From the NCBI GenBank assembly GCA_949752735.1, contig OX457038.1:63649470-63713469 (forward strand): a stretch of 64,000 bases of DNA. The letters are read 5' to 3'. The notes beneath the pieces are model-generated. The model was not told where the DNA came from. It did no database searches and saw nothing but the letters and a program-made list of their open reading frames with translations. Numbering within the stretch: position 1 is the first letter of the stretch; the number at the start of each line of letters is the position of its first letter. The DNA is from Lumbricus terrestris (taxonomy: Eukaryota > Annelida > Clitellata > Crassiclitellata > Lumbricidae). Both the position numbers and the translations under genes were made by a program. Positions 1-62,564 of the stretch are shown piece after piece.

Positions 1-388
1 TGTCACGAAACCACACGATAATATCCGACAATAATTATCAACAACTTGCGACCGTTCAAACTTCGGCCACTACGTTCTTCCTCTCCAGACTGAAGATGCT
101 CAACGCGCAGGCGCAGCAGCCGATCCTTTTATCCGCATCTCATTGGCTGATGCCGTGATTGATCATTGTTATATTCCGCAATGTTTACCCCTATTTAATA
201 TATATTTTGCCCCTAAGTACTGGTTATAGCCCTGGTCAATTAATTAAACAGAGCAATGTGAAATTTCTCAATCAAATTATTAATTAATCATCAACTAGGG
301 CCTCTGCCTAACTTAACAGGTGTAATTAACATTCAACAATATATATAGCAGGGTAAGAACGTACGGGTGGAATCAAGGATATCGCTAC
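1..388. other. intergenic, no gene recognised
   Basis: AT-rich sequence with no open frame of interest. Polymerase homology of the neighbouring fragment stops abruptly near 389, so this is probably sequence brought in by a deletion or insertion breakpoint. Confidence 0.5.
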
Positions 389-1223
389 AGGAATACAATT
401 AATTTTCTCACAATTCTCACCTCGCAATTTCTTCACGAATAGATGGCTGTCGTATCCGGATAGATTATGGAATACTACTGGGAAAAACTTGGGGACTTTA
501 TAGTTTATATTACAGCTGTTATGAGCGGCGCCTCTGAATTTACCGCTTAAATGGCAATGATCTCTAACTCGATCCTCGCCTAACTCTCCTCCGCAGATAT
601 GGCAGTTAGCACTTAGCAGCTTCATCGAAACATTTCCTCTCAGTTTTGCCGAATATCATATTCTTAGGGAATTTAAACTCGTTATATATTCGTTTTATAT
701 TTTCTACAAGAGAATCTACGAATATCTGAGCGACATCGTCGTCTTCGTTTTCAGCCGCAAACTTTACAGCATCTTGTGAAAACACGCCGTCGTCGGAGCA
801 TTTTATGTGGTAACAAAACGAGCTAGGCGTATGTTTCTGGTATTTATTGGTGTACGACGTGCTAGGATCGGGCTGACAAGTATCGATCGGTTTAATGAAA
901 GATTCGAAATCCGCATAGACGATAAAAGGTACTCTCATCGATTTAAAATAATGTTTAAAACTTAACATAGTACCAGGTTCCGGCATTTCAATTCGTTGGG
1001 CGTCCTGCTACGAACAGTACTCGCTGTGCTTAGTAAGCGAGTCTATCGATCTGTAACCGATTAAACATCTTTCACAATAGTGCATCGAATTTACAGATTT
1101 TTCAGTTCGTGCCGCCATCAATCTATTAAAGTTCTTGATCCAACAATAATGCTTCTTTTCTGCGTCGGAAATAAGCAGTAGTTTTACGCGGGTATCGCTT
1201 TCATGCTTCGATATATATAATGG

Positions 1224-1831
1224 GTTCCACGACAACTGGTCTACCGACAACTCGTCTACCGACAACTCGTCTCCGGACAATTGGTCTAACGACAACTGGT
1301 CTACAGACGAATAGTATTGATGAAATAGAAGCCGGATTTATGAAAATGGTTTCTTAGCTTACATGAAAGCTGGATCGATGATTTTATTCATGTATTTCGA
1401 CATGCATCCAGCTTCTACTTCAGATCTAAAAATACCTTCATCCAGCTTCTATTTTTCACCCGTTATTTTCGTCAATCCAGCTTCTATTTCAGATATAAAA
1501 CAATACCCTTATCCTGCTTCCATTGCTTAAGCGTTTTTCATCAATCCAGCTTCTATTTCAGATCAAGAAATACTTTCATCCAGCTATTATTTCCCATACG
1601 TTATTTTCGTCAATCCAGCTTCTATTTCACCTGTAAAAGAGCCATCATCCAGATTTAATTTCTCTTGCGTTTTTTCATCAATCCAACCTCCACTTCACAT
1701 GTAAAAACTTTCATCCAGCTTCCATTTCTGAAGCGCTGGATCAGTTGTCTGTAGACCAGTTGTCGTAGACGACTTGTCCAGAGACCACTTGTCGTTAGAC
1801 GAGTTGTCGGTAGACGAGTTGTCGTGACACC
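1224..1831. mobile_element. MULE-like foldback element, copy 1
   Basis: A 608-bp element flanked by the 9-bp direct repeat ATATAATGG (1215-1223 and 1832-1840). Each end is an inverted array of 15-bp units close to CGACAACTSGTCTAC, about five per end. The interior holds degenerate direct repeats of CATCCAGCTTCYATTTC roughly every 50 bp. There is no transposase. A 9-bp duplication with long inverted ends suggests Mutator-like transposition (inference). It splits the PolB pseudogene, and the duplicated target reads as repeated PolB codons. Confidence 0.8.
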
Positions 1832-1865
1832 ATATAATGGGTATACGTCCTTTTCATAGCCGAAT

Positions 1866-2114
1866 CATCATCATCATTGCTCTCCTCCGTCCGGCCGCGC
1901 CGACGATGAGGCTTTTACATGGCGTCTCCACGCTGCTTTATCCTTGATGGTATCCATGGCATTCCTCATATCCATGTGCCTTTCCTCTAGATCTTCTCTT
2001 ATGTTGTCGATCCATGTTTTTCTTTGACGTCCTCTACTTCTCCGTCCCTCCACATTGCCGTGTAGAGCCGCAGCTGGCAGTCTTCTGTCGTCCATTCTTG
2101 ATACATGTCCAAAC
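1866..2114 (-). mobile_element. 5'-truncated LINE, extreme 3' end
   Basis: A 249-bp insertion in the PolB pseudogene, flanked by the 11-bp duplication CATAGCCGAAT (1855-1865 and 2115-2125). On the minus strand it encodes the typical C-terminal tail of a LINE ORF2 (GRRSRGRQRKTWIDNIREDL) and ends in an (ATG)n tail. Heavy 5' truncation with a variable-length target duplication fits target-primed reverse transcription. Confidence 0.85.
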
Positions 2115-2880
2115 CATAGCCGAATAGGTTAACGCTAATGTTATTGTCTCGCTCAAACTTTTTTAATAATATTATCATCAACAGCAACCGGGAATTCGAT
2201 ACCACTCCAATCGAGCTTCTTATATTGTTCTTTTAGATCTCTCGTGATTCTCGCCGGGTTGCAATCAGTTGGGTTCAACGCTCTAGTAATACACCATTTA
2301 AAACATTCATCGTCGTCGTTTTTCAGGTTAATAATAGCCTTTTTATTGGCTAAATACATGGGAAGCGGAATATAAGAACTACCTTTCAATGGCTTATATA
2401 CCACTGTATCGATATCCAACTTCATAACGGCTCTGAATCTCCAATTACTGCCCCGCATCTGAAAACTTGCCATGCTCTCCTTAATTTTATCCACTGCGTT
2501 GCTATATATTTCGCTCAAATCGGTTGCTTCTAAAATAATATCAGTCTTTGATTTAAAATTAGGTTCGGCCATTACTACTTCACCGGATTTCATATCTACT
2601 TTCTCCATTTCGCAATTAAGATTGAGTTGAACTTTTACCCCTCGATTTTTCGCCAACAAACTGACTACCTGCGGTCTTACGGCATTGTGAAAAGACGTTG
2701 CATCGATCCCGCTTGTTCCATCGATCGTGTATCGCTTAGTAAATCCTTGAATAGCCTTCGCAGTCTCTCGAATTTCGAACTTATTTTGATTAATTTTACT
2801 AAAATTACCCGAAACCTTTGTCTTCAACGATTCTAATTTATCGTTGACGGTCTTTTTATTTGCGGAGGCACGTAGTTAAT

Positions 2881-3410
2881 CAACCAGTCTGAAAAAGAAT
2901 TAATTTCAGACCTCGCCTTCTTTTTCAACGATTCTATATCAACATTATACCATTTCTACGGAGGGGATTTACTCGGTGTGAGGATCGAAGCTTTAATATC
3001 CGGAACATGCGCGTCGAGCAAATTATCTACATTTTCCGTAGCTCCTCTGAATACAACATTGACATTGTTTGCTTCTTCAGCAGCCCGAATGGTCTCAAAC
3101 AATTCCGCTTTTCGCAGTCTTGAGTATCCTTTTAGACCTCTTTGTCTGGCGATATTTCGTAATTCAACAACGGTATTTTGCGAGTAGCCCATTTTATTAT
3201 GGTTATCTCTTCCTTTAAGCCCTTTCATGAAATCAGGTTTTATGGGGAAATCCCCTTCACGATGAGTTGAAGGCACACGTTAGGTGGTTTGGTGTTTTGA
3301 CCCTGTGATATGCTGCTATGTAGTTGTATCTTTGTAATCGCGGCTAAGATGATTGTCGTTGTTATGAGCGGAGACTTAGAGGGAGACAGAGGGCCGGTCC
3401 CCATCAATGG
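2881..3410. other. broken PolB 5' end and upstream flank
   Basis: The PolB frame is interrupted by stops in 2828-2955, although the residues SDWLINYVPP remain readable. From 3277 to 3408 no coding signal or inverted repeat was found that would mark the end of the original element. Confidence 0.4.
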
Positions 3411-3417
3411 TGATTAT

Positions 3418-4026
3418 GGTTCCACGACAACTGGTCTACCGACAACTCGTCTACCGACAACTCGTCTCCGGACAATTGGTCTAACGACAACTGGTCTACA
3501 GACGAATAGTATTGATGAAATAGAAGCTGGATTTATGAAAATGGTTTCTTAGTTTAAATGGAAGCTGGATCGATGATTTTATTCATGTATTTCGACATAC
3601 ATCCAGCTTCTACTTCAGATCTAAAAATACCTTCATCCAGCTTCTATTTCTCACCAGTTATTTTCGTCAATCCAGCTTCTATTTCAGATATAAAACAATA
3701 CCCTTATCCAGCTTCCATTGCTTAAGCGTTTTTCATCAATCCAGCTTCTATTTCAGATCAAGAAATACTTTCATCCAGCTTTTGTTTCTCATATGTTATT
3801 TTCGTCAATCCAGCTTCTATTTCACTTGTGAAATAGCCATCATCCAGATTCCATTTCTCTTGCGTTTTTTCATCAATCCAACCTCCATTTCACCTGTAAA
3901 AACTTTCATCCAGCTTCCATTTCTCAAGCGCTTTATCAGTTGTCTGTAGACCAGTTGTCGTAGACGAATTGTCCGGAGACCACTTGTCGTTAGACGAGTT
4001 GTCGGTAGACGAGTTGTCGTGACACC
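3418..4026. mobile_element. MULE-like foldback element, copy 2
   Basis: A 609-bp copy very similar to the one at 1224-1831, with its own 9-bp duplication GGTGATTAT (3409-3417 and 4027-4035). The inverted ends made of 15-bp units and the internal CATCCAGCTTC repeats are the same. The high similarity suggests recent or shared activity. Confidence 0.85.
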
Positions 4027-14188: not shown

Positions 14189-16030
14189 TCACTCAGAAGC
14201 GCTCCCAGTCCAACCACGGTGAAACAAAAAAGTTTTAAGGAGCTTGCAGAAGAGTGATGAGTCAACCCTTGGTAGCAGGCGCACCTGCAACGGGAGACTA
14301 TTCCAGACAGATGGACCTACAACTGAGAAAGCACGACGCTGACAGGTTGAGATTTCAACACGTGGGACCAAAAGCTTCCCGCTAGAGGCAGAGCGAAGGG
14401 CTATGCGAGCCAGGACAACAGATACTGGACAGCAGAGCTCAAAAAGATAAGTCCGAGCACAGCCAAGGAGACAACGCCAAACCAGTGAAGCAATTCTGTA
14501 CTCGATGCGCTGTGATATAGGTAGCCAGTGTAGAGTATCACGCATGTATGATGAAACAGAGGCATATTTAGGGATTCGCCCAATAAGCCGGGCTGCAGAC
14601 CGAAGAACACGGTCAAGTCGGGATATCAATAATTGAGGCAAACCAGCAAGAATAGAGCAACAGTAGTCCAAGCGGCTGGTGACAAAAGCATGAACAAGAG
14701 TAGCAGCAGAATCCTCTAATAGGGAGCGAGAGATGACCCGTAGCTGAGGAATTTGGTAGTAACAGCCACGAGTCAGCTGATTGACATGTTTTGAGAAACT
14801 AAGTTCTTCATCCAGTGTAACACCCAAGTCCCGGACAGAATAAAAAAGGTAACACGGGGAAATGCTTTAGCCACGGCACTATCAGATAGTTTAAGTACCC
14901 CTCTCGGTACTAAGGGCTAGAGGTCCCTGTGTTTGGGGAGGTACGGGGAAGATCTTACTTGCTAACTCACAATGATAGCCTAGCTAGTAAAGAAGACACA
15001 AGATTAGTTTTCATATAAAAGTATTATTATTATATCAACTTCAGATCAATTCAGCCCAGCAAGAGTATCATCTGCAACTTGCTAGTCTAAACTCATCCTA
15101 TCAGTATTAATTATTAATATTTATTTCCTTAAGCTAATTCACACCGTTCTTACCCCTAAGTCTTAGAACAGGCTACCTAACTAATGCTAGTATTAAGTAG
15201 CGACTCAGATTAAGAACGAAGTTGTTACTCGTGATGAACCCTCAACTCTGTCTGCTACAGACGGTTTGTCTTACCACTAGGTATCAAACTCCTATCCCTT
15301 CCTTTATCCAGGCTGACCGCCTGGAATTATCGGTTACATGGCCTTATATATCATAGCTACTTGTATAGCGCACAGTTGACAGCCAATCGTGTTCTAGAGC
15401 TGTTCGCCATTGGATCTGTGTCCTGGCTTCCCCGCGCTACAGCCAATGAAAATAGACGATGTATGCTTGTGTGTTCCCATGATTGACACTATGTATATAT
15501 ACTCTGTATCCCACTACACTCAAGTTATGCATCCCTATCTATTATGTGTGTTCCCTACGTCTGCCTATTTTCTCCTCATTATAGCACAACGATCAACATT
15601 TGCCAGTCGCCTACGTCCACCCAACCAGATGAATTGAGTTTTGGAAGCATTAAGTATATGAGGCGGTTAGAGGCTAACCAGCTAGCCAGCTTATCCATAG
15701 CATGACACATTTGCTGGACCACTGTCAGAGCATGGTCAGGGTGGCAGTGGGTATACGCCTGAACATCATCTGCGTACAGCTGGTGAAAAAGACCACAAGA
15801 TGTCAGCAGTGATCCTATGCCAGACGTATAAATAATATAAAGCAATGGTTCCAAAACAGAACCCTGAGGGACTCCAAAAGGGGCAGGAACCCAGGCAGAT
15901 CTGGGTGTACCAAAGCAACAGAATTGGTGCGTTCAGATAAAAAAGAATGAAGCCATTTAAGAGGCTGATCCACAAAGCCAAAAGAGGTAGAAAGGCGTTG
16001 GAGGAGTATGTTATGATCAACGCAGTCAAA
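14189..16030 (-). pseudogene. LINE ORF2 reverse transcriptase, C-terminal half, interrupted
   Basis: Reading leftward: the palm region (16030-15577) has LFDCVDHNILLQRL and the catalytic YADD motif (YADDVQAY). After an insertion (14871-15576) the tail follows (14870-14189) with LGVTLDEELSFSKHV, SRLDYCCSILAGLP and RRAFSVVGPSVWNSLP. The upstream endonuclease is missing and the palm contains frameshifts, while the tail is open over 212 codons. The pattern fits the CR1/L2/Rex group of LINEs (inference from motif style). It is a dead 5'-truncated copy. Confidence 0.85.
14871..15576. mobile_element. about 700-bp insertion in a LINE, unclassified
   Basis: LINE codons end near 15577 and resume near 14870, so this block is an insertion. 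It has no reading frame and no clear terminal repeats or target duplication. Confidence 0.5.
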
Positions 16031-50446: not shown

Positions 50447-51941
50447 GAGGCTTGCCTCACTGTTGAGATAGTCTGACATTTTGGGGCTATAAGGCTGTTG
50501 AATTGTCTGGCTCGACTCGTGGTAAAACACGCTTCGAGTGATAACTGCTTGTAGAGCGGAGTAAGTCCTGAAACGGCCTTGAGCTAGGCGTCGGTCTTGA
50601 ATGTTCAGGTTTCCCTCTACGTGACTGAGGTTCGGTCTCCGACAACCAACACCTCCTGACGAGAACGACCGCTGGGATCCGCTGCGACGACGGTTCTACT
50701 CCGGGCGCTGCTACGACGGGTCTACTCCCTGCGCAGCCATGACGGTTCTACTCCTGGCGCAGCGACGACGGTTCTACTCCGGGCGCTGCTACGACGGGTC
50801 TACTCCCTGCGCAGCCATGACGGTTCTACTCCTGGCGCAGCGACGACGGTTCTACTCCTGGCGCTGCCACGACGATTCTACTCCTAGCGCTGCAGCGACC
50901 CCTGACGTTCTGCAGGCGCTATCGACGCTGCTGCGATCTTAACGACGAATTGACGTTCCGCATTGACAATTGCTGCGAACAGTGGTGCATTAATCCGGAC
51001 TGTGGCGCTACAGAAACTGCTCCGAACATTGCTCCGAACATTGCTCCGAACCATGGCGCTACAGAAATTGACTGTGAAAACTGCATAGACCTTTTTGTTC
51101 TTCAAATAAATGAGCTTAAGCCTAGTCGGCTAGTCTTCAGTCTACAGCTGAAGCCTGATCCCGCGGACAAGACGACGATACCCTGACGACTAGGGCTGGT
51201 GTTCGGCTCCTGGTGTTTTTGCCCAGCCCTGGTCCGCTACAGTATGAAACAAGAAATTCGCTTTCTTTAAGAGCTGAATTTGCCAGAACAAGCTCCCGTA
51301 AATTTTTTATAAGGTGTAGGGGTCGTTTGTTATGGAATAGTTTGCCACAAAGCCTTAAAGCTTCTCCTAATATTAACCTATTTAAAATAAACCTACGAAA
51401 ATGGCTAATAGATGCCCATAACTGATATTAAATACTTCATTTAAATACGCTCTCTCTGTATAGTGAGTTGGATCGATGTGCCTGTCTCCTTGCTGTGATG
51501 TTATGATAACCGTGATTAACTCTACTCATCTACTGTTACTTTGATTTTTCATCAAATTGTGGTGTGTATCTGTCAAAATTATTTAATAGATTGTTTGGGG
51601 GCCCTTCTAGCGGGATTTCCTACCTTCTGGGTCTCCATTTGTGTCCACTATTGCACGAGTTTTTTTTATAACCTCGCATTCCAGGTCTAGGGATAATTGT
51701 CCGCACTGATATCACTTAGCCTTAGAACCACTAGGTTTAAACAATCCTTACCTGTGTGAATAATTTATGTTAACTAATTAAGTTATTGGATTGATTAATG
51801 TCTAACAACTTGGTGATACTTGAAATGTTTCGTGTAACTTTTGTTCTTGACTTGGTGTGCTTGTTGTTGTTACAAACGGACCAATAAAAATTGATTGATT
51901 GATTGATTGCCTGCCATTCCTTCGCCGCCATTCAATACACA

Positions 51942-52272
51942 AGTAGGGGACAACTGGATCAGATAAACCAAGACAAAAGAATTGCGGGGGGTCAGAGGTC
52001 AAAAGATAAACCAACAATAGAATGCGAAGATAAACCAACAATGGGCGAGAAGTAAGACCAACAATAGAAGCATGACGTCAGCAACAGATGTGGTAATCGA
52101 CACCCCTTTTAATGCCTGGATTTCTTAGACCAGTGGTTTATAAATCGACACACTTGACTGAGCACTGGAGGCTGAGGTGGCAGGCCCCACCCCCACCCCA
52201 CCCCCACCTGGCTTCGCCAGGGGGAATTTCTGCTGATGCGGCAGATGCTGCAGCTGCTGTAGCAGCTGCTAT
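51942..52272. repeat. left terminal inverted repeat of Polinton-like element
   Basis: 331 bp matching 60917-61239 inverted. The outer 41 bp and the 51940s-52140s part are nearly identical; a segment about 42-90 bp from the end has diverged. The inner end is rich in GCTGCTG. Contains an inward-facing TTTATAAAT. Confidence 0.92.
52137..52145 (+). promoter_or_regulatory. inward TATA-like box in left TIR
   Basis: TTTATAAAT, also present in the right TIR (61044-61052, minus) facing the gene block. On this side it faces non-coding repeats. Confidence 0.4.
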
Positions 52273-52960
52273 GGGTATAGCTGTTTAAAAACCAGTATTA
52301 TAATATTTGATGATACATAGGCAGACAAACAGGCAGTGACACGAATCTAACCACAGATACCCGCTCTACAGTGGTATTGTCTGAACCACCTACTGAAATC
52401 GAGCCCCATCTCCACCCCACGCCCCCACCCCACGCAGACTGGCTGGATTGACCAGCGGTATTTCCCATTCTGCTGCAGCTTCTGCTGCTGTAGCGGCCTT
52501 TGCTGCATCATGGGTATAGCTTTTTTAAAAACCACCATTATAATAGACGAAAAAACACAGGCAGACAAACAGGAACTACCACGCACGTAACCACAGACCA
52601 ACACACAGACTCTACGGTGGCATTGAACCACCTGCCGAAATCAATAGCATTACTAATGACTGCTGATGCGGGTCAACCCCGCTGGCAAAGGATAAGCATG
52701 GTCGCACAGCGCTTTTGATCAGCTCTTTGCACTGTAACGCCACAGTTGATGTACTTGAGCATGCATAGACAGACAAGCGGTAATACTGAACGACACACAC
52801 ACACACACACCTTCTGCCGCTCGAGCTGCAGCAGCCAAGTCAAGCATGGATGCACAGCTCTTTTGATCAATTCTTTGCATTGTAACGCTGCATTTGATGT
52901 AGCTGTACATGTATAGACAGACACACATTAATAATGGCCAACACACACGAACACACACAC
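52190..52960. repeat. subterminal imperfect tandem repeats
   Basis: Unit 52190-52400 is repeated at 52400-52650 (GGGTATAGCT, AAAAACCA, CAGGCAGACAAACAGG, TCTACRGTGG). Two more degenerate units of about 150 bp follow (52670-52810 and 52815-52960; CAGCKCTTTTGATCA and TGCAYTGTAACGC). Found only at this end of the element. Confidence 0.8.
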
Positions 52961-53385
52961 ACACACACTATGAGCTGTCATTGCATTTCCAATCATTTGC
53001 TTAGGACATAGAATCACGATTGTAGGAAATGACATTGGTCATCCACATAATTTAAAAAAAATCAGACATTTTACAAGAAGCGCTAAGACCTGCATACACA
53101 AGGGCATTCATTCGAGCTATTTCCCCTCTACCCTAGCTCTTGCAGCAGTAGCACAGACAGCCCGCATTTGTGTATATATATATAAATAGACACGCTATTA
53201 TAGAGTAGAAACACCATCACAATGTCACAAGACACACGGTAAACGTATAATTATAATACAGAGCGAATACGCGGAGCTAATGAAAGATCCAGCCATTATG
53301 ATGTGAAGCGATCACCTTACTTTTTCTACATACTAGCATATATTTCAGAATCATATAAGTCCTTTCTTTAACACATGCTAATACG
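52961..53385. other. non-coding part of Polinton-like element
   Basis: No open frame; lies where a polymerase gene would be expected if one had been deleted. Confidence 0.6.
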
Positions 53386-53690
53386 CATTTCAATGTAATC
53401 GCGAAAGACCCCAACAGCATAGCTATATGGCAGACGTATGGTATTTGTATATACAATATCCCTTATAGGGCTTTTCGTGCCATATTATAATACACATTTC
53501 AATGTAATCGCGAAAGACCCCAACAGCATAGCTATATGGCAGACGTATGGTATTTGTGTATACAATATCCCTTATAGGGCTTTTCGTGCCATATTATAAT
53601 ACACATTTCAATGTAATAGTGAAAGACGCCAAAAGCAACGCTCTATGGTATATGGCTAGTATTTGTACATACAATGGTAGAAATCACCAC
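53386..53690. repeat. 109-bp tandem repeat, about 2.5 copies
   Basis: CATTTCAATGTAATCGCGAAAGACC starts at 53386, 53495 and 53604 (109-bp steps). Each full unit ends with TATCCCTTATAGGGCTTTTCG. Immediately downstream of the protease gene. Confidence 0.92.
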
Positions 53691-53783
53691 CGTCACAAGA
53701 CACATGGCAAACGCAATGAAAGAACACAAAGCTTTTATTTTCAACAGCGTTTTATTGGTACATCTTAGAAACAAAGCGATGCG

Positions 53784-54203
53784 TTAAAAAGTCATTAAGA
53801 CCGGTGTCGCTTGAGAACATGTTGCAAACGGCATTAACATTGTAACCTCTACATCTATGCATTGCATAAAAATGCAATAATGTCCACAATATCTACTGCT
53901 TATACTCTGGAGCTGGTGACCAGTGTAGATCCAAGACGAACAATGTCTGTGTAAAAATGTTCTGAATGGTATGTCTGGGGCTCTGCCAAAAGAGTCAAAA
54001 AATTCGCCATATGTGGAACTTTCGATGTACAGCACTACCCAATGTATTCCCGGTTGACCATATCTATCTGTATTGCATACAATGATACTAGGTTTATTTC
54101 TATGGATCCTAGTCGGAAGGCGGTCGCTAGCGAAAACGCCCAAGAACATGGAGGAGCACTTTTTATCTCTTCGCAAAAACTTTTCTAAGGTGAGGCCATC
54201 CAT
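53784..54203 (-). CDS. adenain-like cysteine protease, frameshifted near the C-terminus
   Basis: Maturation protease of the adenovirus/Polinton (C5, Ulp1-like) type, which cleaves capsid precursors inside virions. The catalytic set is visible: His54 (GIHWVVLYIE), Asp70 (EFFDSFG), Gln99 and Cys106 (QSISSRYCGHYC). The seven-residue step from Gln to Cys equals that in adenain (Gln115/Cys122). The core up to residue 118 is normal. Near residue 119-121 (about 53840-53852) the frame appears to shift: another minus-strand frame continues with family-like sequence to a stop at 53752, overlapping an AATAAA signal (53751-53756). The annotated 139-residue frame therefore ends in unrelated residues. All catalytic residues lie before the break. 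It is the last gene of the block, 14 bp after the capsid gene. A sequencing error could explain the shift. Confidence 0.85.
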   Translation of the reverse strand: MDGLTLEKFLRRDKKCSSMFLGVFASDRLPTRIHRNKPSIIVCNTDRYGQPGIHWVVLYIESSTYGEFFDSFGRAPDIPFRTFLHRHCSSWIYTGHQLQSISSRYCGHYCIFMQCIDVEVTMLMPFATCSQATPVLMTF

Positions 54204-54217
54204 CTTGTTCTTCTTCT

Positions 54218-55540
54218 TTAGTTGGTGTAGTCGAAAAGAACGTTGCGAGATCTATCTATTTCCAATATGTTTTCAAATTCTGCGAAGGCTATAACATTGA
54301 TGGTAGCTTCCAAGGGCTGGGCAAATTTAATATCGACTCTTACATTGCCACTTTTCAGAAGGTTAAAATGGCCGCCCTCTGCTAAATCGGGTGTTAAATC
54401 GAATGCGTACAAGCAATAGCCGTGCGCGTAATCTTCTCTGCTTATGTCGTTGTCTTCGTTTCTCTGCCACTTGCCAGTGCCCATAAAGAGCGAAGCATAT
54501 GCATTCACAAACTGCCTAGTTGCAAAGTTAGTTTCCAAAGGTTTTATACTTTGCTGCTGACCGTCCAGGTATACTTTTAATTGAGATAGATTCATGTGTT
54601 TGAAATTGAATGGATTCTTCGTGTAGCTCCCGTTGAATGAGTCATTATCGATGCAACCAAAAACAATGCGAGTCGGAATCTGACCGGTGAAAAGACACTC
54701 TTGCGTAACATCCAGATTCCCTCTTGGAACCGTAAAAGTCTTGCAAACAGCCCTTCGAATGGGAAATTTCAGATTTCCAATCTCTAAAGCTTTGGCGTGC
54801 GCGAGAAAGACTGATGGACTTAACTTGACTTTTCTGACGTACAATTTACATTCCAATATTTTTACTTTGTATGCAGCACCAGCCGCCGAGGACATCAGAC
54901 AGAATGAATCTTTATTTCTTACGAACCGTATTTTTATATTAATGTCATTTGGCAAGAACTTTTCCTGGAAGAATAGATCGCTGTGAATGCCACCCAACAT
55001 ATCCACAACACGGCCTCCATCGGTCAGAGCGCTACGCTTTTTGAAGCCTATATTGGTACCGGCATCGTCGTGAGGATTGGTTTCTTCGAAGCGGCTGGCA
55101 GTGTCCTTGTAAAAGAGAGCAGAGGTGAGTTGAGAATTTTTGCTTGCTGCGCCATAGCTGAGCAGGGTCTCGAGATAACTTCTATACGCATACGTGTTGT
55201 TTGATGAAGTGACAAGAGTGTCGTTTAGAGTGATGTCACCTTCGGAAAAAAGGCTGTGTAGGAAAAGATTGACTGGCCCAACATCATCTCCAGCATCTGT
55301 AGCATCATTATTCGCCCGAACGATAGACGCTCTGACGTACAACTGTGTGTTAGACAGATCCAGGTAATCTTGACCTGCTCCCGATATGCTAAATTCTATA
55401 GGCGTGCCCTGTGATATCGTTGCTATTGGATTATATTCCACATACGAGCCAGATTCTATGCTGGTCTGCGTAGGGGGAACGCTGAAAAGGTCCAGTTCGC
55501 TCTTTGCACACTCGCAAGATTGGGGGTGAACGAAGGCCAT
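54218..55540 (-). CDS. major capsid protein (Polinton hexon-like)
   Basis: A 440-residue protein of the family annotated in many invertebrate genomes as F54H12.2-like, which in Polintons corresponds to the double jelly-roll major capsid protein. It forms the shell capsomers. Family features visible: N-terminal SELDLFSVPPTQTSIESGSY, then GAGQDYLDLSNTQLYV, NTYAYRSYLETLLSYG, and C-terminal YCLYAFDLTPDLAEGGHFNL with NVRVDIKF and a Tyr-rich end. The beta-rich alternating pattern fits a jelly roll, but the fold is inferred. It follows the VI-like gene after 2 bp. A TATA-like TATAAAGGC (minus, 55658-55666) lies about 120 bp upstream, inside the previous gene. No break is seen; the length is full. 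Confidence 0.8.
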   Translation of the reverse strand: MAFVHPQSCECAKSELDLFSVPPTQTSIESGSYVEYNPIATISQGTPIEFSISGAGQDYLDLSNTQLYVRASIVRANNDATDAGDDVGPVNLFLHSLFSEGDITLNDTLVTSSNNTYAYRSYLETLLSYGAASKNSQLTSALFYKDTASRFEETNPHDDAGTNIGFKKRSALTDGGRVVDMLGGIHSDLFFQEKFLPNDINIKIRFVRNKDSFCLMSSAAGAAYKVKILECKLYVRKVKLSPSVFLAHAKALEIGNLKFPIRRAVCKTFTVPRGNLDVTQECLFTGQIPTRIVFGCIDNDSFNGSYTKNPFNFKHMNLSQLKVYLDGQQQSIKPLETNFATRQFVNAYASLFMGTGKWQRNEDNDISREDYAHGYCLYAFDLTPDLAEGGHFNLLKSGNVRVDIKFAQPLEATINVIAFAEFENILEIDRSRNVLFDYTN

Positions 55541-55542
55541 TT

Positions 55543-55947
55543 TTAAACTATGCCAAATATATCTTCCTTGATTCTTTTCTTATTTCTTCTCAGTGAACGC
55601 TTACGTCTCTTCCGTCCGCTCCCACTCTGAACATTAAAATCTTTTGAAGATGTAAAAGCCTTTATACCTTCTGGCACGCGACGCTTGGCGGCCTCCATGA
55701 TCGGATCGCCATCCGCCACATCGTTCGCAATCTGAAGACCTGTTCTCAAGGCTTGTTTACCAAGGGCTTTAGCACCAGTCTGTATAAGTGGCCATGCACT
55801 TCTAAAGAGCCCGCTAAGAAAACTACCAATTCCATGACCGCGCTGAAGGCGTGCACCCTGAAAAAATGGCATGCCATTTCCGCTTTGCTGCATATAGTAG
55901 TCTTCGTACGCCAAACGACTTGCATCACAGCAGAATGGTTTTTTCAT
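55543..55947 (-). CDS. protein VI-like minor capsid/membrane-active protein
   Basis: 134 residues. Residues 40-72 form an amphipathic/hydrophobic stretch (GSFLSGLFRSAWPLIQTGAK) followed by ALGKQALRTG, the arrangement known from adenovirus protein VI and its Polinton counterparts. A basic tail follows (residues 112-127, RKRRKRSLRRNKKR). The pattern Gln-x-Gly-x-Gly occurs three times (residues 21-25, 35-39 and 107-111) and resembles the adenain cleavage rule, so the element protease probably trims both ends. The start codon overlaps the stop of the upstream penton-like gene (ATGA). TATAAGG (minus, 56037-56043) lies about 90 bp upstream. The role is by analogy; it could also be called pX-like. 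Confidence 0.65.
   Translation of the reverse strand: MKKPFCCDASRLAYEDYYMQQSGNGMPFFQGARLQRGHGIGSFLSGLFRSAWPLIQTGAKALGKQALRTGLQIANDVADGDPIMEAAKRRVPEGIKAFTSSKDFNVQSGSGRKRRKRSLRRNKKRIKEDIFGIV
55658..55666 (-). promoter_or_regulatory. TATA-like box before capsid gene
   Basis: TATAAAGGC on the minus strand, about 120 bp before the capsid ATG and inside the VI-like gene. Confidence 0.4.
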
Positions 55948-56768
55948 TGTAAAAGATATGGAATTTTACAGTGTCTGAAATGTAGTGTAACGATGCACTT
56001 TCCACTTTCGAATGAAACTGGTTTGCCAGTGTCCGTCCTTATATGCAATTCTATAGAGTCGAAATTCTTCTGCTGCAGAGGTTTGTAAATGGGCTTTTCG
56101 TAGATGGTGCGCACGTTGTCGCCTGCATTTCCACCGATGTTAACGATTCTGAGTAATGGCGCCTTTGTATCCCCAACAGGGACATGTTCAAGTACGTCAC
56201 AATAAATATATAAAGAAGAAAAGCCACGATTTATGTCGCAAGTTCTATCACCAACAAACTCGAAAATGGCCTCGTCGTCCTGGCCGTAGTTGAGAATTGG
56301 CATCTGCTCAGCATCGATGCCAAGTATCGAACATAATGCACGCGAAAAATGAATCTTTGTTCCTTTGTTTATATCGCCCGTCAATCTTTTCGATACGATA
56401 TCGTATCTAAATTTTGGAAATTCGAGCAAATAATTTTCCTCGGCAACCTCTCTTATAAATTTGTTTATGTAATCGATAAGTTGCTGCGCTGTTTCGTAGT
56501 AGCCGGCCGGAATCCAACGTCTTTTAAATATAGGATTGCTTTGCATCGATCCACTTTCGGTGAACGTGGCGTGCGTGTACGTTATTCCGCCTTCTTGGCG
56601 TTCTAAATTGTTCCACGTATGAGGATAATATATTTCCAGAAGAGCAACCTCCCAATCGCCGCTTAGAGAAATGGGATTCTCCAGACGCGTTGTAAATTGC
56701 GCGACAGTATTATTCGGGTAAAATGCCGTGGAGCTGTTGCTAGGCAGCGTCAGATAGAAGTGCGCCAT
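55944..56768 (-). CDS. penton-like minor capsid protein, paralog B
   Basis: 274 residues, clearly homologous to the adjacent gene 56772-57641. Shared segments: HFYLTLPSNSS at the N-terminus, GDWEVALLEIYYPHTWNN, AGYYET, a C-terminal block with GDTKAPLLRIVNIGG, QQKNFDSIELHIRTD and VTLHFRHCK. The family recurs in Polinton-like elements next to the major capsid gene and is the best candidate for the single jelly-roll vertex protein. That assignment is inference. Only 3 bp separate it from paralog A, and 4 bp overlap with the VI-like gene. Compared with paralog A it lacks about 15 residues in the middle (around an acidic, Trp-rich loop in A). Intact. Confidence 0.65.
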   Translation of the reverse strand: MAHFYLTLPSNSSTAFYPNNTVAQFTTRLENPISLSGDWEVALLEIYYPHTWNNLERQEGGITYTHATFTESGSMQSNPIFKRRWIPAGYYETAQQLIDYINKFIREVAEENYLLEFPKFRYDIVSKRLTGDINKGTKIHFSRALCSILGIDAEQMPILNYGQDDEAIFEFVGDRTCDINRGFSSLYIYCDVLEHVPVGDTKAPLLRIVNIGGNAGDNVRTIYEKPIYKPLQQKNFDSIELHIRTDTGKPVSFESGKCIVTLHFRHCKIPYLLQ

Positions 56769-56771
56769 TAT

Positions 56772-57641
56772 TTACTGAAGACTGAAATTTTTGCACTGTC
56801 TGAAATGAAGCACAACGAACGACTTCCCATGCTCGAATGGAATGACATTACCATTATCGCCTCTCATATATATTTCTATCGATTCGAAATTCTTCTGCTG
56901 AATAGGTACGTATATAGCGGACTTGTACAAGACGTGCACATTATCGGCGCTTTTATCTTCTATATTAACTATGCGAAGTAAGGGGGCTTTCGAATCGCCA
57001 AGCGCGACAGATTCAACCAGATTGCAATACATGTATATATGTGAAAAGCTCGGATTTATATCGCATCCGTAATCAGATTCCCAGTCCCAATCTGGAACCT
57101 CCTCCCAAGCTTTAATATAATCCTCGTAACGCTCATGGTAAAAATAAGTGCCGTAATTGTTGTTTTCGACAACTTTATGTCTTTCCTCTATACCTAAAAT
57201 ATTGCACAGATGTGATGAGAAGGTTACGCGCGCAGCGAGATTGATCTTGCCATGGACTCTTTTAGTTATCGCATCATATCTAAATTTCGGATATTTCTCG
57301 AGCGAATGCAATTCGGCAGCATCCTCTATATTCTTATTTATCGCATCTACTATAGCATGAATATTTTCGTAATATCCGGCGGGCAGCTGCCAAGAGTGGT
57401 GAATCGTTGTGCATACTGCGTCGATGCTTCCTCTTTTAGGAGCTTGGTCAAATGTAAAGCCGCCCTGGCCACTTTGCACGTTGTACCACGTGTGCGGGTA
57501 TTGCATTTGCAGAAGTCCGACTTCCCAGCGACCTTTGAGGGAGATGGCATTTTCCAACTTCGTTGTAAAGTGGGCTGTAGTATTGTCGGGAAAATGCTGC
57601 ATGGAACTTTTGCTTGGAAGAGTAAGATAAAAATGCGACAT
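56772..57641 (-). CDS. penton-like minor capsid protein, paralog A
   Basis: 289 residues from the Met of MSHFYLTLPS; an upstream in-frame Met at 57653 adds four residues not matched in the paralog. Shares with 55944-56768 the N-terminal FYLTLPS, the WEVGLLQMQYPHTWYN block and the C-terminal GDSKAPLLRIVNIED, QQKNFESIEIYMRGD and VVLHFRQCK. It has an extra acidic, Trp-rich loop (AWEEVPDWDWESDYG) before a conserved CDINPSFSHIYMYC segment. A tandem duplicate kept in the element; the difference in the loop suggests the two proteins have separate jobs, for example vertex base and fibre-bearing form, or a heteromer. Function assigned by position and family only. Lies 39 bp downstream of the integrase gene. 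Confidence 0.65.
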   Translation of the reverse strand: MSHFYLTLPSKSSMQHFPDNTTAHFTTKLENAISLKGRWEVGLLQMQYPHTWYNVQSGQGGFTFDQAPKRGSIDAVCTTIHHSWQLPAGYYENIHAIVDAINKNIEDAAELHSLEKYPKFRYDAITKRVHGKINLAARVTFSSHLCNILGIEERHKVVENNNYGTYFYHERYEDYIKAWEEVPDWDWESDYGCDINPSFSHIYMYCNLVESVALGDSKAPLLRIVNIEDKSADNVHVLYKSAIYVPIQQKNFESIEIYMRGDNGNVIPFEHGKSFVVLHFRQCKNFSLQ

Positions 57642-57680
57642 TGTCGTTCGCACACTCTGACAGACTGTGCGAAATTCTTG

Positions 57681-58709
57681 CTAGACTTTGAATATATCCT
57701 GAGTCCACGAGTTGAACTTGTCTTCGTAGCCTTTCCATTTGACAAAATACTCTGTCTTCCCGCGCCGCTTACGACTTTTCAGAATTTTTTCGATCGTGTA
57801 AATATCATCTTCCTTTAAAATTCTTTGCAACTCAAACTCGTAGAATTTACCCTTTATTTTTTCGCCACTTAAATCTTCGAGCTCATTGGTTACGGGGTCT
57901 GTAGGCACGCGACTTACAATCTTAAAGATTTCCGTCGACCAGCTCGGCAAGTATCCCTTCTGGAATGCTATCCTGGCCTTTGCGATTCTAACCTTATCGT
58001 TCACTTCGTATTTCCTATTGGCAGGGCGCTTCTTCTGGCCGTACAATCGTTTTATAATAATATTTTCGTTATCCTTAGAAACCTGGTTGGGTGGCATGGC
58101 TATAGATCTATGATGTGTGTTGTTGTACGAATGAATGAGATCTTGTAAAATATCTATATACCTATACGTATTCTTATAAGTAAAGTATTTCCACATCCTG
58201 GTCTTAAGAGTTCTATTGAATCGTTCGACCACAGAGGCCTTTATGTCACTATTTTCGGACGTGTAAAAGCGAATGGAATTTTTACGTAGCATGGATTGAA
58301 AGCTTTTATTAAGAAATTCTGATCCCTTGTCAGTCTGCAAATTAGCCGACTGTCTATCTAAAAGAATGGATGAAAAGGCCTCGGTCAGGTCCGCACCGGA
58401 CTTTGTTTTTAGCGGGACAGCCCAGGCATATTTAGACAAGACATCTATACAGGTTAAAATGTATTTATTTTTATCGTTATGTTTCGCCAATGCCGAAAGA
58501 TCGGCCAAGTCCGCTTGCCACAGATTGTCAATACCTGGCGCGAAAGTTTTTCGCCTTCTAAAGTTAAGCCTAACAGGTTTATGTAACGTGAATGCATCTT
58601 GTTTAATCAACCAATTTTTAACGTCTTTATTTTTAAAGTCAGAATGTTTTTTAAATGTTGACAAGCCGGCGAAGCTTCCGGGCGTCTTGGGGTCGAAGTA
58701 CGACTCCAT
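57681..58709 (-). CDS. Polinton integrase (DDE, chromodomain)
   Basis: 342-residue retroviral-type integrase that inserts the element and makes the 6-bp target duplication. The catalytic triad is visible: Asp67 (LWQADLADL), Asp127 (LQTDKGSEFLN) and Glu162 (ASVVERFNRTLK). An SH3-like basic region follows (KYEVNDKVRIAKARIAFQKG). Residues 302-342 are a chromodomain (YTIEKILKSR, EYFVKWKGYEDKFNSW) with cage aromatics Tyr304, Trp325 and Trp335, so insertion could be steered to methylated chromatin. A zinc-binding HHCC head is not obvious in the first 60 residues. Its ATG overlaps the stop of the upstream gene by one base (TGATG). Full length and without breaks, which suggests recent activity. Confidence 0.95.
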   Translation of the reverse strand: MESYFDPKTPGSFAGLSTFKKHSDFKNKDVKNWLIKQDAFTLHKPVRLNFRRRKTFAPGIDNLWQADLADLSALAKHNDKNKYILTCIDVLSKYAWAVPLKTKSGADLTEAFSSILLDRQSANLQTDKGSEFLNKSFQSMLRKNSIRFYTSENSDIKASVVERFNRTLKTRMWKYFTYKNTYRYIDILQDLIHSYNNTHHRSIAMPPNQVSKDNENIIIKRLYGQKKRPANRKYEVNDKVRIAKARIAFQKGYLPSWSTEIFKIVSRVPTDPVTNELEDLSGEKIKGKFYEFELQRILKEDDIYTIEKILKSRKRRGKTEYFVKWKGYEDKFNSWTQDIFKV

Positions 58710-59097
58710 CAGTAAGTCAGCCAGGCCGAAGAAGATGATGTTAAGGAGGGAAGCTGCTGTTTACCGTGAATGCTCTTTGTCGTAACTGCTGTCGATTCGT
58801 CTGTGAATTCGTTAATATAGGACCAGCGTTCTTGATTTCCTATCAGCTCGCGAGGTATGTTTGAATCTTTGAGAGCGTCGGCCAAGAGTCGCCAACCGGT
58901 TGGTGGCGAAGATGTTGTGCGTTTTCTCATAAGATCGTTCACCAAATCGACCATGTGTGTTTTCGGAATAGTTGCATCCTTCAAAATAAGTTCACCTTTA
59001 GAATTCCAGGCCACGTCGGGATTGTTCTTCATGTGCGATAAAAGACGAGCAGCCTGTGTTTTCCATTTCTTTGGAACTGTTTCCAAGACTTGTTTCT

Positions 59098-59133
<36 letters not shown>

Positions 59134-59404
59134 AGTCTGTAGATTCGTCAGAGTTCGCCGCCGCCGCCGCCGCCGCCGTCTTTTCTTTGGTTTCGAATTT
59201 TGCAACTATGCTGAGTTTGTCAATGTTCAAGTAACGATTCAAACTGTTGGTATACAGTTTGGCCTTATCATCGTCTGCAATATTCCTATGCAGAATATCG
59301 TACATCTGTGTGTCCAATTTCGATAGTGTTTTATCTAGCATAGTCTCCTTCCATTTCTCTATCTGCCTAGGTTCCACCAGAACCATTTTCTTCGTATGCT
59401 CCAT
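58709..59404 (-). CDS. conserved Polinton protein of unknown function, Ser/Ala-rich
   Basis: 231 residues. The N-terminal 75 residues are helical and charged (MVLVEPRQIEKWKE, DKTLSKLDTQMYDIL). Then follow an Ala run (encoded by CCGCCG on the plus strand near 59160) and a Ser run (CTGCTG near 59105), i.e. two trinucleotide-repeat tracts that may vary between copies. The C-terminal part (KKWKTQAARLLSHMKNNPDV, GELILKDATIPKTHMVDLVN, TGWRLLADALKDSNIPRELI) looks globular and is typical of an uncharacterised protein found next to the integrase in Polinton-like elements of invertebrates. Function not known; a DNA-binding or virion core role is possible. It directly abuts the small basic gene (1-bp gap) and overlaps the integrase start. 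Confidence 0.6.
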
Positions 59405-59405
59405 A

Positions 59406-59735
59406 TTATATTTTATTACTCAGCAATGTACCCAGAAAAGAAAGTACAGGAGTTAACAATGCTCCTATGAATCCGCCCGTCTGCACTATACGCTTCTTGA
59501 TTTTTACACGCGTCTTCTTGGATGCAAGCTTTCTCAACTTGTGTTTGAAGCGACCGAGTCTTTTCTTCTGAGCGTCTTTCAAAGGTACAGTTCCTTTTAA
59601 AATGTTGAGTGCACACTCGCAAAGGTAGCAAAGCAGAGAAGAGTTGCAGTCTTTTAAAATTCGTTTCCTTACTTTAGGCGAAGATTCTTTAAGCAGTCTG
59701 AGTTTCTCAAACTTCTCCTCAATGGGTTCGGACAT
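59406..59735 (-). CDS. small basic protein with hydrophobic C-terminus
   Basis: 109 residues if started at the Met of MSEPIEEKFEKL, preferred because it lies just after the ATPase stop and 33 bp downstream of TATAAACG (minus, 59768-59775). Two upstream Met codons (59780 and 59837) would overlap the ATPase gene. The product has a Cys pair (CYLCECALNILKG), a strongly basic middle (about residues 55-82) and a hydrophobic end (89-105, FIGALLTPVLSFLGTLL) after Gln-Thr-Gly-Gly, which resembles an adenain-type cleavage site (XGG|X). This is a recurrent small Polinton/adintovirus protein, perhaps a DNA-condensing or membrane-active virion core protein. Function inferred. Confidence 0.6.
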   Translation of the reverse strand: MSEPIEEKFEKLRLLKESSPKVRKRILKDCNSSLLCYLCECALNILKGTVPLKDAQKKRLGRFKHKLRKLASKKTRVKIKKRIVQTGGFIGALLTPVLSFLGTLLSNKI

Positions 59736-59776
59736 TTTGGTTGAATGAGAGATGCTGCTCGAGTAGGCGTTTATAT

Positions 59777-60391
59777 TCATTTCCTTAAATTGACATGATG
59801 CATCTCGCCTGGGAAAATGTTTGTTCTTATGCGGCAACGTTCATCAGTTTCCGGTCTCAGATCGATCAAAAGATATCCGAAAGGTGCCATAGTGGCATCT
59901 TGGAAGGCTTCTATTATGAAATTTGCCTTGCCTGGAAACATCTGACGGGCGAGTATTGCAACCTGCGTGCTGTCTCTAACATTTTTGAAGAGTACAAAGT
60001 AATATGCATTCAAACTGATTGTTCTTGTGTGCTTTCCACTATAGAAAAGATTCTGCGTCAGGTAGAGTATAGAAACGTTCATATGATGGCTAATCTTTGT
60101 AAATAATTTGGTAACCCTCTCGTCAGTTTCACTCATAAGATCGTCTAAAATGAGCGGAGTCTTTTGCTTGCCATCGAAAATAGCCAAGTCGGGCAATCCT
60201 TCGTGAAATTGGACGTGGGTGTATTTATCAAAGATTTCTTGGTATATGCCAAAACACCAGATAAGTTTTTCTATTGCAGGTTTGACCATATAGTCTAAAT
60301 GATCTATAAATCGTAACGTGAAGTTGGTTTTTCCTGATCCACTAGGCCCGCTGATTATTGCAGAGAATGGATGCCTCCAAGTTGGGTCCAT
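59777..60391 (-). CDS. FtsK/HerA-type genome packaging ATPase
   Basis: 204 residues from the Met of MDPTWRHPFS. An in-frame Met further upstream (60514) would run through the RING gene and is not favoured; TATAAAAAG (minus, 60426-60434) sits 35 bp before the chosen start. Walker A GPSGSGKT is at residues 15-22 and Walker B LILDDL at 80-85, followed by a sensor-like YLTQNLF. Related ATPases of Polintons, adenoviruses' relatives and virophages pump DNA into preformed capsids. The C-terminus (RCRIRTNIFPGEM) is complete. No damage is visible. It is the clearest sign that this element makes, or made, particles. Confidence 0.92.
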   Translation of the reverse strand: MDPTWRHPFSAIISGPSGSGKTNFTLRFIDHLDYMVKPAIEKLIWCFGIYQEIFDKYTHVQFHEGLPDLAIFDGKQKTPLILDDLMSETDERVTKLFTKISHHMNVSILYLTQNLFYSGKHTRTISLNAYYFVLFKNVRDSTQVAILARQMFPGKANFIIEAFQDATMAPFGYLLIDLRPETDERCRIRTNIFPGEMHHVNLRK

Positions 60392-60425
60392 TTTAAAAAG
60401 TAAATATCTTTTGAAGCATACAGCT

Positions 60426-60434
60426 CTTTTTATA
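60426..60434 (-). promoter_or_regulatory. TATA-like box before ATPase gene
   Basis: TATAAAAAG on the minus strand, 35 bp before the chosen ATPase start. Supports the 204-residue form. Confidence 0.5.
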
Positions 60435-60753
60435 CGAGGTATATTCTTACAGTTCCAAGGATACGCTCGTCGCATGAGGGACAGTGTGTTGCAATGTCCG
60501 CACAAGGATGGCACATATTCACATGCCTACACGGAAGAGATAATGACTGCACTTGCTTTTCTTTACAGAGTATACAAGTAACTGATTTCTTCAGCTTTTC
60601 ATTCTCCGCTTTAAGTTTCATAGTGCTATACTTTACAACGTTTTCGTCTTCGCTGTGAATGCTCACCTCGTCGTCTTCACCTTGACACATTATACATTCA
60701 CATTTGTAGTTTCCACAGACATCCATTTCGCATTTACTAATTTTAGGACACAT
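60430..60753 (-). CDS. RING-finger protein, probable E3 ubiquitin ligase
   Basis: 107 residues. A C3HC4 RING is visible at Cys60, Cys63, Cys75, His77, Cys81, Cys84, Cys91 and Cys94, of the compact C-terminal type found in IAP and MDM2 proteins. The N-terminus has six further Cys (C2, C8, C13, C18, C20, C23), possibly another small zinc site, then an acidic linker and a short Lys/Glu helix (KLKAENEKLKKS). No BIR domain. This is the first gene after the right TIR, with TATAAGAG (minus, 60820-60827) about 70 bp upstream. RING proteins are not part of the Polinton core set; large DNA viruses use them against apoptosis or restriction factors, so a host-interaction role is plausible but unproven. 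Confidence 0.8.
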   Translation of the reverse strand: MCPKISKCEMDVCGNYKCECIMCQGEDDEVSIHSEDENVVKYSTMKLKAENEKLKKSVTCILCKEKQVQSLSLPCRHVNMCHPCADIATHCPSCDERILGTVRIYLV

Positions 60754-60819
60754 ATCAATAGCCGTTGCTGCTCTTTAGAAGGTTTCAATATGAAATGCCT
60801 GTTAATGAAAAAAGAGGTG

Positions 60820-60827
60820 CTCTTATA
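60820..60827 (-). promoter_or_regulatory. TATA-like box before RING gene
   Basis: TATAAGAG on the minus strand, about 70 bp before the RING ATG and just inside the right TIR. Confidence 0.45.
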
Positions 60828-60916
60828 GCGCCCGCCTTATGGTGCATACAATGATATACTAGTCTATGTTCTATATATAAAAAATATTCTGAACAAAGAA
60901 TGATGACTAAGCATGT

Positions 60917-61239
60917 ATAGCAGCTGCTACAGCAGCTGCAGCATCTGCCGCATCAGCAGAAATTCCGCTGGCGCAGCCAGCTGGGGGTGGGGGTGGGGGT
61001 GGGGACTGCCTCCTCAGCCTCCAGTGCTCAGTCAAGTGTGTCGATTTATAAACCACTGGTCTAAGAAATCCAGGCATTAAAAGGGGTGTCGATTACCACA
61101 TCTGTTGCTGATGTCATGCCTCTATTGTTGGTCTTACTTCTCGCCCATTGTTGGTTTTACTTCATAATCTATTGATGGTTTTAGTTTTCGCGCCAAAAAT
61201 TCTTTTGTCTTGGTTTATCTGATCCAGTTGTCCCCTACT
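60917..61239. repeat. right terminal inverted repeat of Polinton-like element
   Basis: 323 bp, inverted match of 51942-52272. Contains CAGCTGCTACAGCAGCTGC at the inner edge, a (GGGGGT)n tract and TTTATAAAT (61044-61052) facing the gene block. Confidence 0.92.
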
Positions 61240-61245
61240 TACACA

Positions 61246-62067: not shown

Positions 62068-62564
62068 GGTTCCACGACAACTGGTCTACCGACAACTCGT
62101 CTACCGACAACTCGTCTCCGGACAATTGGTCTAACGACAACTGGTCTACAGACGAATAGTATTGATGAAATAGAGGCTGGATTTATGAAAATGGTTTCTT
62201 AGCTTAAATGGAAGCTGGATCGATGATTTTATTCATGTATTTCGACATGCATCCAGCTTCTACTTCAGATCTAAAAATACCTTCATCCAGCTTCTATTTC
62301 TCACCCGTTATTTTCGTCAATCCAGCTTCTATTTCAGATATAAAACAATACCCTTATCTAGCTTCCATTACTTAAGCGTTTTTCATCAATCCAGCTTCTA
62401 TTTCAGATCGAGAAATACTTTCATCCAGCTTTTATTTCTCGTGCGTTATTTTCGTCAATCCAGCTTCTATTTCACCTGTAAAAGAGCCATCATCCAGATT
62501 TCATTTCTCTTACGTTTTTTCATCAATCCAACCTCCATTTCACCTGTAAACACTTTCATCCAGC
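62068..62564. mobile_element. MULE-like foldback element, copy 3, truncated
   Basis: Left end and interior match copies 1 and 2 closely. The right end is cut at 62564, where CAGTGGCGTCTACC, a hAT-type end, begins. Confidence 0.85.

What the first reader, a model, noticed from the sequence alone, without database searches (positions are those of the whole stretch)
51942..61239. A complete 9.3-kb Polinton-like element with all capsid and integration genes but no DNA polymerase
Both ends and the 6-bp duplication can be read exactly, and ten packed genes lie between. The replicative PolB, part of the standard animal Polinton set, is absent, not merely broken. The element keeps an intact integrase, packaging ATPase, capsid protein, two penton-like proteins and a protease core (with one frameshift after the catalytic residues). 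This points to a satellite-like strategy: own particle and integration, polymerase borrowed from a full Polinton, virus or host.
Basis: partly seen in the sequence, partly recalled or inferred. Interest (0 to 1): 0.9.

Follow-up and report, generated by a model that had tools for sequence, protein, structure and literature searches.

The report
Polymerase-less Polinton family, high copy
This is one copy of a large, recently mobile family of virus-like jumping elements that carry their own integration and shell genes but no DNA polymerase, in a genome that also holds relatives with a polymerase, so they probably borrow one.

Summary
In detail: 51942-61239 (9,298 bp), ~325-bp inverted repeats, 6-bp duplication TACACA, ten packed minus-strand genes, no PolB. 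The host genome (1.06 Gb) decides between deletion derivative and lineage. An ATPase search scored 150 of 817 candidates, all 85-100% identical. In 68 of 68 copies examined, a RING gene, not PolB, stands before the ATPase (one partly unreadable, one displaced). Of 20 read at both ends, 14 have exact 6-bp duplications and lengths of 8,237-9,864 bp. The capsid-gene candidate is under purifying selection (median dN/dS 0.06 in 95 of 190 pairs). Two copies on different chromosomes differ at 1 of 2,933 bases. The genome also holds 16-kb Polintons with PolB and a second PolB class without Polinton genes near the one copy examined. None of the 150 compact copies lies within 20 kb of a scored PolB. So this is a stable PolB-less lineage; taking PolB in trans is the best inference, not shown. 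This copy's protease is frame-shifted; 16 of 19 sampled sisters keep the frame there.

The parts
51936..51941 (.). left target-site duplication TACACA
   Evidence: sequence
51942..52270 (+). left terminal inverted repeat, starts AGTAGGGG
52271..53783 (.). non-coding region with tandem and dispersed short repeats (109-bp x 2.7 etc.); largest ORF 94 aa; no PolB trace
53784..54203 (-). adenovirus-type C5 protease, C-terminal part frame-shifted in this copy; most sampled sister copies keep the frame
   Evidence: Pfam PF00770 26 bits
54218..55540 (-). major capsid protein candidate, 440 aa
   Evidence: gene order, 24% identical over 348 aa to a protein of the 16-kb Polinton, purifying selection; fold not confirmed
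55543..55947 (-). 134-aa protein in the PW position
   Evidence: ORF, position
55944..56768 (-). penton-like (minor capsid) protein 2
   Evidence: paralogue of the next gene, 46%; position; fold not confirmed
56772..57641 (-). penton-like (minor capsid) protein 1
   Evidence: as above
57681..58709 (-). integrase, rve core plus C-terminal chromodomain
   Evidence: Pfam PF00665 41 bits, PF00385 39 bits
58709..59404 (-). 231-aa protein in the PZ position
   Evidence: ORF, position
59406..59735 (-). 109-aa protein in the PM position
   Evidence: ORF, position
59777..60391 (-). FtsK/HerA-type packaging ATPase (Pox_A32)
   Evidence: Pfam PF04665 25 bits
60430..60753 (-). RING-finger protein, first gene, in the slot where Mavericks have PolB
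   Evidence: Pfam PF13920 37 bits; upstream of the ATPase in 68 of 68 copies examined
60919..61239 (-). right terminal inverted repeat
61240..61245 (.). right target-site duplication TACACA
   Evidence: sequence
329..3279 (-). decayed N-terminal part of PolB of a separate, conventional Polinton that runs off the left end of the window; not part of the element
   Evidence: continues in L049

Best explanation
The element belongs to a stable, diversified, recently mobile lineage of compact Polinton-like elements that keep integrase, packaging ATPase, protease and capsid genes but have no polymerase. Shown: integration with 6-bp duplications, AGTAG-ended inverted repeats, no PolB in the parts read of any copy examined, purifying selection on the capsid-gene candidate, near-identical copies on different chromosomes. 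Inferred: a linear copy is made by a polymerase supplied in trans, most likely the PolB of co-resident Polintons (or an infecting relative), then packaged in its own particle and integrated by its own integrase, like a satellite that keeps its own shell.
For: 150 scored ATPase copies, 146 without an inner stop. RING upstream of ATPase in 68 of 68 examined; no PolB match in 88 fetched family pieces. Both ends read in 20 copies: 14 with exact TSD, 8,237-9,864 bp, right ends all AGTAG. ATPase-to-protease spacing 6,136-6,216 bp in 18 of 19, so no room for a 3.3-kb gene. MCP dN/dS median 0.06 in 95 of 190 pairs, dS saturated between the deepest subfamilies. Copies on C5 and C15 with 1 mismatch in 2,933 bases. 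PolB sources in the same genome: 108 scored class-1, one read as a 16,352-bp element with AGTAG ends; 150 scored class-2. 0 of 150 compact copies within 20 kb of either.
Against: No experiment or expression data. Terminal similarity between compact and PolB-bearing elements goes little beyond AGTAG, which resembles the general Maverick end motif. Only 150 of 817 candidates were scored and 68 examined, 48 of them only near the ATPase, and rank 81 is partly N, so a minority with PolB could be missed. Selection was measured on one gene only. An unrecognised replication protein among the ten genes is not excluded.
Confidence: 0.62

Rival explanations
1. Deletion derivative: compact elements arose by loss of PolB and are mobilised by close PolB-bearing sisters with the same ends; selection acts in those sisters.
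For: Loss of PolB from a Maverick-like ancestor is the simplest origin: gene order fits the two Maverick modules minus ppolb. Only 150 of 817 candidates were scored.
Against: Same layout, with the same RING gene before the ATPase, in every subfamily examined (68 of 68), so not repeated independent deletions. None of 150 compact ATPases lies within 20 kb of the 108 class-1, 78 PF03175 or 150 class-2 PolB hits. The conventional Polinton read here has only distant homologues (MCP 24%, ATPase 33% over 73 aa, protease 30% over 94 aa, integrase 45%).
Confidence: 0.15
2. Host-polymerase or cut-and-paste element: the integrase moves the element as a Ginger-type DNA transposon and host polymerases copy it; no helper is needed.
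For: Integrase with chromodomain and TIRs is all that such a transposon needs (Ginger recalled, title and abstract start seen).
Against: It does not explain purifying selection on the capsid-gene candidate nor retention of ATPase and protease.
Confidence: 0.13
3. The element has its own unrecognised replication protein (for instance the 231-aa protein).
For: PMC10120064 warns that replication enzymes of such elements may go undetected (passage). The 231-aa protein has no Pfam match over cut-off.
Against: Its place fits PZ of Mavericks, which have PolB as well. No polymerase or primase hit in the ten proteins; the only helicase-like hits are sub-threshold ones in the ATPase (RNA_helicase 17.8 bits against a cut-off of 21.5; a DnaC-like PHROG at E 0.016), probably its P-loop.
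Confidence: 0.07
4. Dead fossil: a decayed insertion in one locus.
For: Protease frame-shifted; the two TIRs differ at 7 of 230 inner columns besides gaps, and more in the 58 columns outside them.
Against: Nine other ORFs open over 2,141 codons; 150 scored copies, a near-identical pair and unbroken proteases elsewhere.
Confidence: 0.03

Closest known systems
Polinton/Maverick (vertebrate Mavericks, PMC8097293: section 7 read, other passages seen)
   Same: 6-bp duplication, AGT-type ends, TIR length, integrase-mcp-PW-MCP-protease and ATPase-PM-PZ gene order (PM, PZ, PW and the capsid genes by position only); both modules on one strand as described for Xenopus tropicalis
   Different: No pPolB; 8.2-9.9 kb against 12.7-24.6 kb; RING gene in the PolB slot; two penton-like genes instead of one minor capsid gene
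Tlr1 element of Tetrahymena (PMC4642659, passages seen)
   Same: Integrase, packaging ATPase and capsid proteins without DNA polymerase
   Different: Tlr1 has a PIF1-like helicase and lives in a ciliate; none of the ten genes here matches a helicase family over cut-off
Adintoviruses (PMC11071296, passages seen)
   Same: rve integrase with chromodomain; duplicate pentons occur
   Different: Adintoviruses are defined by PolB plus hexon; PolB absent here
Polinton-like viruses and virophage-type satellites of protists (PMC4642659, PMC10120064, PMC11071308, passages seen)
   Same: Many lack a detectable polymerase; some depend on another virus
   Different: PLVs mostly lack rve integrase and lack the protease, both present here

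Membership tests
Polinton/Maverick | 6-bp target-site duplication | tested here: met
   window; 14 of 20 sampled copies
Polinton/Maverick | terminal inverted repeats with AG/AGT end motif | tested here: met
   right ends of all 14 start AGTAG; the script required AG at both ends
Polinton/Maverick | rve integrase (with chromodomain) | tested here: met
Polinton/Maverick | packaging ATPase and C5 protease | tested here: met
   protease broken in this copy, frame kept at that place in 16 of 19 sampled sisters
[quoted passage not shown]
   no family hit for MCP, only an unknown-function PHROG for a penton; models too poor; gene order fits
Polinton/Maverick | protein-primed PolB in the element | tested here: not met
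   hence not filed as a Polinton in the strict sense
Adintovirus | PolB with N-terminal OTU-like domain together with hexon | tested here: not met
   no PolB
Tlr1-type element | integrase, ATPase and capsid without polymerase | tested here: inconclusive
   integrase, ATPase, no polymerase; capsid only by gene order
Tlr1-type element | PIF1-like helicase | tested here: not met
   no helicase family over cut-off in ten proteins
Satellite of a PolB element | replication depends on PolB in trans | not testable with these tools
   only the presence of PolB elements in the genome was shown

The most novel reading that the evidence does not exclude
A split Polinton: in one animal genome the capsid-plus-integrase half (this family) and a polymerase half (the high-copy class-2 PolB units, with no Polinton gene found within about 1.7-2 kb of the one copy examined) live as separate mobile elements that need each other, the polymerase half being carried in the other half's particles. 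This would be a two-part virus system inside a genome.
Probability: 0.13. Interest if true: 0.93.

Novelty: new variant of a known kind. Interest (0 to 1): 0.77.

Why it matters
Polintons are described as self-synthesising because they carry their own polymerase. A large, recently mobile lineage in which the capsid and integration module is kept and the polymerase is gone, next to abundant polymerase-bearing relatives, makes helper dependence between Polintons of a multicellular host testable, as virophages did for protists. My searches showed no paper describing such a lineage in animals, but only open-licence papers are held, most listed papers were seen only as listings, and passages or one section were seen in six.

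Tried and rejected
Tried without result: viral-contig scans with MCP, ATPase, integrase, the 109-aa protein and an MCP alignment (no relatives); structure prediction of MCP and of the penton pair (too poor to search with); PDB by sequence; Pfam and PHROGs on class-1 PolB pieces (no polymerase family hit). Class 1 is therefore called PolB from recalled motifs and from 47% identity over 176 aa to the class-2 PolB, which passes PF03175.

Rejected: that the PolB gene was deleted from the left non-coding region (no trace; and Maverick order puts PolB beside the ATPase). That the head-to-head pair at C14:24446662/24452787 is an inverted dimer element: the palindrome runs on into the flanks, so it is a genomic palindrome or assembly artefact. 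That rank 81 has a 1,148-aa fusion: the frame runs through a stretch of N.

Not resolved: ends and gene content of the class-2 PolB units; whether any of the unscored ATPase candidates sits in a PolB-bearing element; the host's name.
Full report
What is in the window. The element runs from 51942 to 61239 (9,298 bp). Its first base after TACACA is A of AGTAGGGG and its last base is T of CCCCTACT, followed by TACACA again. The terminal repeats align over 330 columns with 298 identical: outer 42 all identical, next 58 only 35, inner 230 with 221. Ten ORFs lie on the minus strand between 60753 and 53784. Pfam gives, over its curated cut-offs, a RING finger, a Pox_A32-type ATPase, an rve integrase with a chromodomain, and an adenovirus C5 protease. 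The capsid candidate, the two penton-like paralogues, and the 134-, 231- and 109-aa proteins have no Pfam hit over cut-off. Their names come from position. Reading from the right end the order is RING, ATPase, 109 aa, 231 aa, integrase, penton 1, penton 2, 134 aa, MCP, protease. Section 7 of PMC8097293 (read whole) gives for vertebrate Mavericks module 1 = pPolB, ATPase, PM, PZ and module 2 = integrase, minor capsid, PW, major capsid, protease. The order fits except that pPolB is missing, a RING gene stands first and there are two penton-like genes. Structure models were too poor to test the capsid folds.

No polymerase. Seven PolB pieces from the conventional Polinton next door and the C-terminal part of a second PolB class find nothing, at E 0.01, in five pieces that cover the element. 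Controls in that call: the palm, motif-C and class-2 pieces match PolB-bearing loci; the five N-terminal pieces had no control there, but the first of them matches four class-1 elements. The 1.5-kb non-coding stretch beside the left TIR has ORFs of at most 94 aa, and repeats.

The family in the host genome. The window is C4:63649470-63713469 of a 1,056,305,194-bp assembly. The ATPase search scored 150 of 817 candidates; all 150 match over at least 202 of 205 residues at 85-100% identity, and 4 carry an inner stop. I examined 68 of these 150 (the window's own included) at the right end: 8 loci, 20 spread down the ranking, and 40 more. All 68 have the RING gene upstream of the ATPase, in nearly the same place. 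Exceptions: rank 81, where only its last 30 residues are readable and the rest is N; rank 17, where it lies about 0.5 kb further away; rank 23, where only its first 66 residues match. No PolB piece matches any of the 88 fetched family pieces.

Both ends. For the 20 spread copies the other end was fetched too. MCP and protease are found in 19; in rank 56 retrotransposon-like ORFs lie there (by eye). The ATPase-to-protease spacing is 6,136-6,216 bp in 18 of 19 (6,825 in rank 24; 6,188 in the window), so nothing the size of PolB sits in the unfetched middle. Fourteen of the 20 have inverted ends beginning AG on both sides (AGTAG on the right) with an exact 6-bp duplication; their lengths are 8,237 to 9,864 bp. 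Ranks 9 and 68 have inverted ends but no exact duplication; ranks 56, 81, 113 and 150 show no convincing paired ends in the fetched pieces. The TIR sequences differ between subfamilies.

Selection and age. For the MCP candidate (window plus 19 copies) 95 of 190 pairs have dS between 0.02 and 1.5; their median dN/dS is 0.062, range 0.016-0.275. The other 95 pairs are outside that range (dS saturated or too small); among them the close pair of ranks 68/74 (dS 0.01) has dN/dS 1.6, and rank 74 is broken. Between the deepest subfamilies dS is saturated while the MCP stays about 84-85% identical. Copies L004 (C5) and L008 (C15) differ at 1 of 2,933 bases. The other genes were not tested for selection.

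Protease. The window copy is frame-shifted near its C-terminus. Of 19 sampled copies with a protease, 16 read in frame from the catalytic part to or past the conserved tail; one of these, rank 30, has another break upstream, so 15 are unbroken. Rank 24 has an early stop, rank 74 ends early, and rank 88 reads in the shifted frame like the window.

Polymerase-bearing neighbours. Window 329-3279 holds decayed PolB pieces (Rho_N N-terminus over cut-off, an endonuclease VII-like stretch just under it). The rest of that Polinton lies left of the window (L049): its integrase is 42%, protease 29% and ATPase 28% identical to the compact ones; its PolB is not recognised by Pfam. Its PolB finds 108 scored of 1,215 candidates, roughly two thirds (by eye) in open frames of 1,200-1,316 aa. 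One of these, C14:27912341-27928692, has 468-bp TIRs (97.4%), the duplication TCTGTC, AGTAG ends and a span of 16,352 bp (handled as separate pieces). Its proteins are distant from the compact family's: integrase 45%, ATPase 33% over 73 aa, protease 30% over 94 aa, MCP 24% over 348 aa. A second PolB class passes PF03175 (78 matches among 91 scored of 957), and its tail gives 150 scored of 1,057. Around the one class-2 copy read, no compact-family protein matches in 1.96 kb downstream or about 1.7 kb upstream; two copies are 88-92% alike over more than 1.2 kb upstream, so the unit reaches further than I could read.

Linkage. None of the 150 compact ATPases lies within 20 kb of the 108, 78 or 150 PolB hits; the closest is 25 kb. 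By my estimate random placement of 150 by 150 sites would give about one such pair, so the two are simply unlinked. These lists are capped, so they do not cover all PolB genes.

How it most likely works. Shown: integrase-type insertion, copy number, recent spread, a kept capsid-gene candidate, no PolB. Inferred: replication of the linear genome by a polymerase supplied in trans and packaging in its own particle. The conventional Polintons are the obvious donors; the solitary-looking class-2 PolB units are a bolder candidate.

Known or new. PolB-less elements with integrase and capsid genes are known from Tetrahymena (Tlr1; passages of PMC4642659), and many protist proviruses lack a detectable polymerase (passage of PMC10120064). 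PMC11071296 reports adenovirus-class virion genes in genomes without recognisable PolB and integrase (passages). PMC11071308 (passages) says that PLVs mostly lack pPolB and rve integrase. In the passages I saw, none describes an animal lineage with integrase, protease, ATPase and capsid but no PolB. Because a defining feature is not met, I call it a PolB-less Polinton-like lineage, not a Polinton.

Noticed in passing
G000 C2:70108595-70111954 and 150 scored hits; L097, L098, L099: A high-copy second class of PolB (many open frames of about 1,110-1,170 aa) with no compact-family gene found in the nearest 1.7-2 kb of the one copy examined; ends not reached.
   Followed up: partly
window 1-3279 and L049: Decayed conventional Polinton straddling the left end of the window; its PolB carries a Rho_N/SAP-like N-terminus and an endonuclease VII-like stretch.
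   Followed up: partly
window 1223-1831, 3418-4026, 62068-62564: A 609-bp repeat with inverted subterminal 15-mer arrays (CGACAACTGGTCTAC), three copies about 96% identical (the third shorter), one of them inside the PolB remnant; by eye flanked by 8-9 bp direct repeats.
   Followed up: partly
G000 C14:24445062-24455001 (L054, L055): Palindrome with a compact element's right end on both sides (0 of 827 element bases differ), running on into the flanks: genomic palindrome or assembly artefact.
   Followed up: partly
L049 against L094: The two conventional Polintons read here differ in the orientation of the ATPase module relative to PolB, so module flips seem to occur within one genome.
   Followed up: no
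window 15582-15932: Reverse-transcriptase fragment just under the Pfam cut-off; the window also holds many simple and tandem repeats.
   Followed up: no
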